From assembly GCF_014490665.1 (NCBI RefSeq), contig NZ_CP061038.1, forward strand, positions 2,976,001 to 3,040,000: a DNA stretch of 64,000 nucleotides. Direction: 5' to 3'. How positions within the stretch are numbered: position 1 is the first letter of the stretch; the number at the start of each line of letters is the position of its first letter. A program made the position numbers and the translations under genes. The stretch is from Sphingomonas alpina. GTDB taxonomy: Bacteria; Pseudomonadota; Alphaproteobacteria; Sphingomonadales; Sphingomonadaceae. Of the stretch, positions 32,235 to 32,615 are shown piece by piece. The notes beneath the pieces are model-generated. The model saw only the letters and a program-made list of their open reading frames with translations. It was not told where the DNA came from and ran no database searches.

Positions 32235-32615
32235 TGTTCCCCGGCGAAGGCCGGGGCCCAGTTGGGAAAGCCTCTCAGATCGGCGACAGCGTCTCGAACA
32301 GATCATCCCAGTCGGGATTGAGCCCTTCGATTTCCCGCACCTTCCAAGCCCGCTTCCACTCTTTCATGCGCAGCTCGCGCTGCCGTGCCTCTTCGATCGT
32401 GTCATAGGCCTCGAACCAGACCAGCAGATGACACTCGTATTGCTTCGTGAACCCTTCGACGATGCCGTTGCGATGTTCCCACACCCGTCGTGGAAGATCA
32501 CTGGTTACGCCCAGATAGATTGTGCCGTTGCGTTGGCTTGCCATGATATAGACGAAGCCCAGCTTATCCATCGCAGGGGTTCTCCCAACTGGGCCCCGGC
32601 CTTCGCCGGGGAACA
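32235..32615 (-). mobile_element. GIY-YIG cassette bounded by perfect 33-bp inverted repeats
   Basis: The left repeat 32235-32267 and the right repeat 32583-32615 are exact reverse complements over all 33 bases. Each also contains its own CCCCGGC-GAAG-GCCGGGG palindrome. Between them is one gene whose start is 11 bases from one repeat and whose stop is 7 bases from the other, so the unit is compact (381 bp). Shorter relatives without the gene occur at 26915-27003 and 49964-49989. This layout suggests a mobile element or a nuclease-plus-repeat pair comparable to RAYT/REP systems. Mobility is inferred, not shown. Confidence 0.65.
32275..32571 (-). CDS. GIY-YIG domain nuclease-like protein
   Basis: A 98-residue stand-alone GIY-YIG protein of the YhbQ/UPF0213-like group: VYIM and YLGVT form the two signature strands, followed by Arg in SDLPRRVWEH, with His and the C-terminal Glu-bearing EEARQRELRMKEWKRAWK. 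All expected catalytic positions appear intact. Family members are small DNA-cleaving or DNA-binding proteins; their cellular role is unclear. GGGAG at the edge of the flanking inverted repeat, 10 bases before the ATG, seems to be its ribosome-binding site. It interrupts the mdh-sucD cluster. Confidence 0.88.
   Translation of the reverse strand: MDKLGFVYIMASQRNGTIYLGVTSDLPRRVWEHRNGIVEGFTKQYECHLLVWFEAYDTIEEARQRELRMKEWKRAWKVREIEGLNPDWDDLFETLSPI

What the first reader, a model, noticed from the sequence alone, without database searches (positions are those of the whole stretch)
32235..32615. GIY-YIG nuclease gene enclosed by perfect 33-bp inverted repeats within the TCA cluster
Seen: 32235-32267 and 32583-32615 are exact reverse complements over 33 bases, each with an internal palindrome, and a 98-residue GIY-YIG gene fits tightly between (7-11 bases from either repeat). 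The repeat edge even supplies the GGGAG before the ATG. Known: GIY-YIG nucleases occur in homing elements, and RAYT proteins mobilise REP palindromes. Inference: this may be an autonomous element whose nuclease spreads the related gene-less palindromes. I know of no description of such a pair.
Basis: partly seen in the sequence, partly recalled or inferred. Interest (0 to 1): 0.87.

Follow-up and report, generated by a model that had tools for sequence, protein, structure and literature searches.

The report
Nuclease gene inside its own palindromes
A small DNA-cutting enzyme gene sits between two mirror-image copies of a palindrome that is scattered through the genome, and the same pairing, with gene and palindrome changing together, recurs in many bacteria, which suggests that the enzyme helps this family of repeats to spread or persist.

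Summary
The repeat is a REP-like hairpin; its core has 79 copies in the genome (<=3 mismatches, the cassette's two included), 27 tail-to-tail pairs of them REPIN-like. The pairing is general: flanking inverted repeats at 86 of 116 loci in the genus (controls 2 of 342), 18 of 25 elsewhere in the phylum, 52 of 78 loci of named genomes (controls 1 of 234). Nuclease clade and hairpin type co-vary (Mantel r 0.27, 0 of 2000 permutations). The gene occupies mdh-sucD in 24 of 59 genomes; two genomes 94.7% identical there carry different cassettes in that slot. RAYT-type Y1_Tnp was found in 4 of 61 genomes, not this one. So nuclease and REPs form a co-evolving, partly mobile pair; that the nuclease moves REPs is inference. 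Against it, several genomes hold many REPs without the matching gene. A 2025 paper on Ssn nucleases (recalled, not readable here) already pairs a GIY-YIG nuclease with a Neisseria repeat. Possibly new is the link to REP/REPIN spread and to CGTC REPs, reported in 2013 to lack a transposase.

The parts
32235..32267 (+). left 33-bp arm: REP-like hairpin (tag TGTT, stem CCCCGGC, loop GAAG, tail CCCAGTTGGGA facing the gene)
32583..32615 (-). right 33-bp arm, exact reverse complement; tail faces the gene and supplies most of a GGGAG upstream of the ATG
32275..32571 (-). 98-aa GIY-YIG nuclease; predicted fold pLDDT 94.4; best Foldseek match UPF0213 protein 1zg2 (E 4.3e-4, TM about 0.57)
32235..32615 (.). 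381-bp cassette as a whole: REP, gene, inverted REP, in the mdh-sucD gap
28273..28329 (.). 57-bp gene-less REP pair of another type (TTGT, stem ending CCCGC, tail CCAGTCTGGG), directly beyond the 3' end of sucA
26915..26932 (+). single REP of the cassette's type (1 mismatch in the 18-bp core)
49967..49984 (-). single REP of the cassette's type (1 mismatch in the 18-bp core)

Best explanation
The cassette is the gene-bearing member of a two-part, REPIN-like selfish family. The GIY-YIG protein recognises the hairpin of its own REP type, most likely as single-stranded DNA exposed during replication or DNA uptake, and nicks it; host repair then copies or relocates the REP pair, and occasionally the pair with the gene between its arms. 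The gene-less pairs are the non-autonomous members, and gene and hairpin therefore change together. SHOWN by comparison: the flanking arrangement in many bacteria; co-variation of protein clade and hairpin; dispersal of the REP pair with a related spacer and without target-site duplication; the same gene/REP type at different loci; different cassettes in one slot in close relatives; no RAYT-type transposase found in this genome. INFERRED: that the protein binds and cuts the hairpin; that the cut drives movement; the repair route. GIY-YIG enzymes hydrolyse DNA without joining it (general knowledge), so host repair must finish the job, unlike RAYT or IS200 transposases.
For: Own genome: 79 copies of the 28-mer within 3 mismatches (41 + and 38 -, reversed control 0); 27 tail-to-tail pairs spaced 66-78 bp start to start plus the cassette at 345, none head-to-head within 400 bp. 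In 19 pairs the spacers are related and no target-site duplication exceeds expectation. Flanking inverted-repeat score >=14: 86 of 116 genus loci (one duplicate, L078, and one relic, L077, included) against 2 of 342 random intervals; 374 ORFs of the window and five syntenic regions gave 8, three of them at the position of the GIY gene; phylum 22 of 29, 18 of 25 outside the genus, against 2 of 145; named genomes 52 of 78 loci against 1 of 234. Co-variation: Mantel r 0.274 for 106 typed genes and 0.636 for 23 mdh-slot genes, 0 of 2000 permutations each; the nearest protein in another genome has the same REP core (edit <=1) for 88 of 106 genes. Different-locus pairs at protein distance 0.2-0.3: 22 of 28 share the REP core, against 213 of 3053 at distance >=0.5. 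Slot exchange: G057 and G024, 94.7% identical over 75.7 kb of matches, hold mdh-slot proteins 54.7% identical with different REPs, while their homologues in another slot are 100% identical. Copy number above 4, genomes with against without a typed gene of the clade: GCCCCTGC 6 of 6 and 0 of 55; A-type strict 15 of 18 and 10 of 43; ATGCTGAA 9 of 10 and 8 of 51. Y1_Tnp in 4 of 61 genomes, not G000; it rings in 5 of 14 control genomes, E. coli and Caulobacter among them.
Against: REP families without the matching gene: strict A-type copies 247 in G057, 168 in G060, 88 in G029; CCAGC type 90 copies in G005. For CCAGC the link is weak: 6 of 9 against 11 of 52 above 4 copies (p 0.011) after two more genes of the clade were found, 4 of 7 against 13 of 54 (p 0.087) before. 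The CCCGC 57-bp type is abundant in G024, G034, G018 and G000, whose mdh slot holds the A-type gene, and the pattern gave 0 in G017, which has a CCCGC-type gene (its tail has one more base, so the pattern may miss it). 30 of 116 genus loci, 19 of 34 lower-ranked loci and 26 of 78 named loci lack the flanking repeat at this threshold. Many cassettes are inherited in place. No clean empty site was found. Clades were assigned by eye on one tree, 16 of 166 matches were never seen, and genomes are not independent, so p-values are too small. The hairpins of the two arms fold only modestly better than shuffles (z -1.75, -2.61). No activity was measured.
Confidence: 0.55

Rival explanations
1. The nuclease is a resident Ssn-type enzyme that uses REPs as its genomic sites, modulating DNA uptake or processing hairpins. 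Gene and sites co-evolve as enzyme and site, and REPs spread by another route; flanking REPs serve expression or protection of the gene.
For: Purifying selection on the gene (dN/dS 0.06-0.24 in 12 pairs); positional conservation; 52% identity to the Neisseria gonorrhoeae homologue, itself flanked by CGTCATTCCCGC-type repeats; recalled 2025 report that the Neisseria protein cuts single strands at its repeat and modulates transformation.
Against: Does not by itself explain different cassettes in one slot in 94.7%-identical genomes, the same gene/REP type at different loci, or REPs enclosing the gene like the arms of a REP pair.
Confidence: 0.3
2. REPs are spread by an unrelated, undetected transposase; the nuclease gene is a passenger caught between REPs and kept for another reason.
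For: Some genomes hold many REPs without the matching nuclease.
Against: The enclosing of one gene family in many lineages with clade-specific hairpins is unlikely for a passenger; Y1_Tnp was found in only 4 of 61 genomes; no target-site duplications, which most DDE transposases leave. Other transposase families were not searched for.
Confidence: 0.12
3. The repeats are ordinary terminators or chance palindromes around a small gene.
For: Hairpins at gene ends can act as terminators.
Against: 33 perfect bases in both arms, 0 in 100 shuffles; 79 copies; 86 of 116 against 2 of 342.
Confidence: 0.01

Closest known systems
Ssn site-specific single-stranded nucleases and their NTS repeats (Neisseria; Nat Commun 2025; recalled, not held in the library, nothing of it seen here)
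   Same: Small GIY-YIG protein with a repeat present in many copies; the window protein is 52% identical to the N. gonorrhoeae homologue, which is flanked by CGTCATTCCCGC-type repeats.
   Different: Here the gene lies inside a REP pair whose gene-less form is dispersed; slot exchange and co-divergence point to mobility. Whether the paper treats mobility I cannot say.
CGTC-tagged REPs (Di Nocera et al. 2013, PMC3733652; abstract, sections 6 and 16 and part 1 of section 17 read)
   Same: Hairpin with stem 8-9 bp, loop 4-5, CCA-like tail, mostly paired head-on; dRS3 is their CGTC-1; many homologues here are flanked by such repeats.
   Different: The authors report no associated transposase gene; here a GIY-YIG gene is associated. 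The window's own REP has tag TGTT/GCTT and a 7-bp CCCCGGC stem rather than CGTC + 8 bp.
REPINs and RAYTs (Bertels and Rainey 2011, PMC3116915; passages seen)
   Same: Inverted REP pairs as replicating units; one gene type flanked by REPs.
   Different: No Y1 (RAYT-type) match in this genome; the enzyme is a GIY-YIG nuclease.
UPF0213 / stand-alone GIY-YIG proteins (1zg2, 1ywl)
   Same: Domain and size.
   Different: Low sequence similarity (phmmer E 6e-4 and 2e-3); REP linkage of those proteins was not tested.
GIY-YIG homing endonuclease genes (general knowledge)
   Same: Nuclease gene that may spread by cutting its own site.
   Different: Homing genes interrupt their site; here two intact REPs flank the gene.

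Membership tests
Ssn nucleases | small stand-alone GIY-YIG protein with intact motif residues | tested here: met
   PF01541 4.6e-15; Y8, G16, Y19, G21, R29, H33, E66 invariant in 27 aligned sequences, the window's included
Ssn nucleases | homologous to the Neisseria protein | tested here: inconclusive
   52% identity over 86 residues to L279 of N. gonorrhoeae; that L279 is the published Ssn is recalled, not checked
Ssn nucleases | cognate sequence present in many copies in the genome | tested here: met
   79 copies within 3 mismatches; that they are cognate is inferred
Ssn nucleases | cuts single-stranded DNA at that sequence | not testable with these tools
   needs purified protein
CGTC REP (window's own repeat) | CGTC, TGTC or CCTC tag | tested here: not met
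   tag is TGTT in the cassette and mostly GCTT in the 19 dispersed pairs read
CGTC REP (window's own repeat) | stem 8-9 bp beginning with A/T pairs, loop 4-5, CCA tail | tested here: inconclusive
   stem 7 bp CCCCGGC, loop GAAG, tail CCCAG
CGTC REP (repeats around homologues) | CGTC tag, 8-bp stem, CCA-like tail | tested here: met
   printed for many of the 115 genes tabulated, not for all
REPIN | inverted REP pair with spacer dispersed as a unit | tested here: met
   27 tail-to-tail pairs at 66-78 bp; related spacers in the 19 pairs read
REPIN/RAYT system | RAYT (Y1/HUH) transposase | tested here: not met
   no PF01797 match in G000 at E 0.001; 4 of 61 genomes positive
IS or MITE of DDE type | target-site duplication | tested here: not met
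   no excess at offsets 0-15 for k of 2, 3, 4, 5, 6 and 8 in 19 pairs
homing endonuclease gene | gene interrupts its own recognition site; empty site intact in relatives | tested here: inconclusive
   no clean empty site resolved; both REPs intact around the gene

The most novel reading that the evidence does not exclude
GIY-YIG nucleases are the missing movers of CGTC-type and related REPs: a class of bacterial mobile element whose only enzyme is a hydrolytic single-strand hairpin nuclease, with gene-less REPINs as non-autonomous members and clade-specific hairpins, independent of RAYT/HUH or DDE transposases and spread over several phyla.
Probability: 0.4. Interest if true: 0.86.

Novelty: new variant of a known kind. 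Interest (0 to 1): 0.68.

Why it matters
REPs of the CGTC type were reported in 2013 to lack a dedicated transposase (PMC3733652). A gene family that encloses itself in the matching REP, and whose clades go with REP type, gives a concrete candidate and natural test cases: genomes differing in one cassette, a REP family above 4 copies only where its gene clade was found, and one slot with alternative cassettes. If right, it adds a nuclease without strand-joining activity to the enzymes that can drive repeat spread in bacteria.

Tried and rejected
Chance or terminator: rejected by shuffles and controls. RAYT-driven REPs: no Y1_Tnp in this genome. DDE element with target duplication: no signal; other transposase families were not searched for. 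Phage origin: no PHROGs family; a viral-contig scan with the window protein alone, which finds close relatives only, gave none. Empty-site mapping with five relatives over 80 kb each gave no clean boundary; intergenic DNA is too diverged. My first idea that G033 had lost an A-type gene was dropped: its 12-residue relic fits CCCGC-type and GCTCCTGC-type proteins best (27.3 bits each) but the window protein nearly as well (25.8), so its type is uncertain; the G043 relic fits the CCCGC type better (46.6 against 42.4). REP counts of the CCAGC and CCCGC types do not follow their genes cleanly. Orphan REPs may mean loss, cassette replacement or cross-use; not resolved. Reading only the short junctions: of the 14 mdh-sucD gaps without a whole gene, seven of 551-950 bp were not read through.

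What was sampled: one search reports 166 matches in 61 genomes (summed). The main survey used 114 of them, mostly the better-scoring, plus the relic L077 and a duplicate, L078 (116 loci). 16 matches were not listed and never seen. Sixteen of the 35 are nearest to the third paralogue L033, which has its own CTGAGC/TCGAAG repeat type. The trees, Mantel test and locus groups do not include these 35. The phylum loci are one best place from each of the 30 best genomes, less the window's own; named loci are the best 80 of 490, many of them metagenome bins that may be mixed, two dropped for short flanks. The hairpin tally (both sides 77, one side 33, none 5 of 115) has no control.

Full report
Observation. 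The two 33-base arms at 32235-32267 and 32583-32615 are exact reverse complements and occur nowhere else in the window within 3 mismatches; 100 dinucleotide-preserving shuffles gave none. The inverted match extends to 46 bp at 89%. Between them, on the minus strand, is a 98-codon ORF (32275-32571) that matches Pfam GIY-YIG (PF01541, 4.6e-15). The gene is 7 and 11 bases from the arms. The model has pLDDT 94.4; the best solved match is the UPF0213 protein 1zg2 (E 4.3e-4), followed by Slx1 chains at E 0.05 and above. Neighbours are malate dehydrogenase, succinate-CoA ligase alpha and 2-oxoglutarate dehydrogenase E1.

The repeat in this genome. The 28-base core has 79 copies within 3 mismatches, the cassette's two included, 41 forward and 38 reverse, with 0 for the reversed control. 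By coordinates, 27 pairs lie tail-to-tail at 66-78 bp start to start, the cassette is the 28th at 345, and none is head-to-head within 400 bp. In the 19 pairs read in full the spacers are related, the outer flank shares a pyrimidine-rich end with TGCTT, and no target-site duplication exceeds expectation. The cassette thus resembles a REPIN in which a gene takes the place of the spacer. The genome has two more GIY-YIG genes; each lies between inverted copies of a different palindrome, CGTCATTCCCGC-like for L032 and CTGAGC-TGTCGAAG-like for L033.

How general it is. In the genus sample, 56 of 61 genomes have a homologue, 166 matches in all. Of 116 loci taken first, 86 have a flanking inverted repeat with score 14 or more, against 2 of 342 random intervals in the same loci (L078 repeats L056, and L077 is a relic). 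Of 34 lower-ranked loci looked at later, 15 pass. As another control, 374 ORFs from the window and five syntenic regions gave 8, three of them at the position of the GIY-YIG gene. A hairpin scan finds hairpins on both sides of 77, on one side of 33 and on neither side of 5 of 115 genes (no control). In the phylum, 104 of 299 genomes have a match; of the 29 loci examined 22 have the flanking repeat, 18 of 25 outside the genus, against 2 of 145 controls. In named genomes 52 of 78 loci have it, against 1 of 234 controls; their record titles name several phyla, many as metagenome bins. One is Neisseria gonorrhoeae L279, whose protein is 52% identical to the window's over 86 residues and lies among CGTCATTCCCGC-type repeats.

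Gene and hairpin change together. On a tree of the genus proteins the hairpin type follows the protein clade, by eye. A Mantel test gives r 0.274 for 106 typed genes of 115 and 0.636 for the 23 genes in the mdh slot, with 0 of 2000 permutations reaching either. For protein distances below 0.1, 0.1-0.2 and 0.2-0.3 the mean edit distance of the hairpin cores is 0.05, 0.54 and 0.68; at 0.3-0.4 it is 2.83 and above 0.4 it is 4.3 or more. This is not only inheritance of a locus: the 115 loci fall into 40 locus groups, 28 of them singletons, and of 28 different-locus pairs at protein distance 0.2-0.3, 22 share the hairpin core (edit <=1), against 213 of 3053 at 0.5 or more. The two different-locus pairs closer than 0.2 split one and one; the mismatching pair, L061/L060, rests on a hairpin in L061 that does not look like a REP.

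The mdh-sucD slot. Of 59 genomes with mdh, 24 have a GIY-YIG match at its 3' end; in one of these, G012, the gene is split in two frames. Of 30 junctions read from the mdh search, 16 hold a gene and 14 do not; among the 14, G033 and G043 keep C-terminal fragments, five more have gaps of 42-98 bp, and seven gaps of 551-950 bp were not read through. G057 and G024 are 94.7% identical over 75.7 kb of matches, yet their mdh-slot proteins are 54.7% identical and carry different REPs; the G057 protein is 95.8% identical to that of G060, the G024 protein 100% to that of G034, while the homologues of G057 and G024 in another slot (upstream of a gene that reads like pheS, not tested) are 100% identical. 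That a slot can change its cassette between close relatives is the best evidence for cassette mobility.

Copy numbers. Above 4 copies, genomes with and without a typed gene of the clade: GCCCCTGC type 6 of 6 and 0 of 55; A-type strict 15 of 18 and 10 of 43; ATGCTGAA type 9 of 10 and 8 of 51; CCAGC type 6 of 9 and 11 of 52 (from; 4 of 7 and 13 of 54 before the late loci); CCCGC 57-bp type 3 of 4 and 8 of 57. At the threshold of one copy the figures are weaker, for example 17 of 43 genomes without the A-clade gene have a strict A-type copy. The genomes are related, so p-values are only a guide. Against the model, G057 has 247, G060 168 and G029 88 strict A-type copies with no A-clade gene found, G005 has 90 CCAGC copies with no CCAGC-clade gene found, the CCCGC type is abundant in G024, G034, G018 and G000, which carry the A-type gene in the mdh slot, and the pattern gave 0 in G017, which has a CCCGC-type gene. 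Loss, replacement or cross-use would each explain the orphans.

Other movers. The Y1_Tnp domain of RAYT transposases is found in 4 of 61 genomes (G006, G010, G033, G043) and not in this one; the control search rings in 5 of 14 genomes, E. coli and Caulobacter among them. No target-site duplication is seen. Other transposase families were not searched for. The genes are under purifying selection (dN/dS 0.06-0.24 in 12 of 13 pairs tried; one failed on a stop).

Mechanism. Shown: association, co-divergence, unit dispersal, slot exchange, no Y1_Tnp. Inferred: recognition and nicking of the single-stranded hairpin and completion by host repair. As single-stranded DNA the two arms fold at -10.8 and -13 kcal/mol, only modestly better than shuffles (z -1.75 and -2.61), while the 57-bp pair folds into one long hairpin (-32.3, z -9.67).

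Literature. Di Nocera et al. 2013 (PMC3733652; abstract, sections 6 and 16 and part 1 of 17 read) define CGTC REPs and state that they are not associated with transposase genes. Bertels and Rainey 2011 (PMC3116915; passages) describe REPINs. Of searches pairing GIY-YIG with REP, REPIN or related terms, one found no paper and the listings of the others, cut at 10 or 20 papers or fewer, showed none whose title or abstract start describes such a pair (listings only). I recall a 2025 Nature Communications paper on the Ssn family of GIY-YIG single-strand nucleases, with a Neisseria repeat called NTS and homologues with their own sequences; it is not held, so its overlap with this report is unchecked and lowers the novelty.

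Noticed in passing
window 28273-28329: 57-bp REP pair of the CCCGC type beyond the 3' end of sucA; this type has 49 copies in the genome although none of its three GIY-YIG genes is of the CCCGC clade.
   Followed up: partly
L033 1440-1800: Third GIY-YIG gene of the genome lies between inverted CTGAGC-TGTCGAAG repeats, a further palindrome type; 8 of 16 relatives of it fetched late show flanking repeats when the flank is taken at the match end.
   Followed up: partly
19 loci, e.g. L110, L111, L115: A second fixed slot holds a GIY-YIG gene, often with REPs upstream only, directly before a gene that reads like pheS.
   Followed up: partly
8 genomes, e.g. G029:C18:42784: Another GIY-YIG gene lies about 6 kb downstream of mdh, in the same TCA region.
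   Followed up: no
L178 and L190: A REP pair at the same site has its spacer inverted in G057 relative to G024 and G018.
   Followed up: no
G033, G043: The two genomes with a decayed nuclease relic at mdh-sucD are among the four of 61 with Y1_Tnp matches; n is too small to interpret.
   Followed up: no
L077 (G043): The relic keeps REPs around a C-terminal gene fragment, like an internally deleted, non-autonomous derivative.
   Followed up: partly
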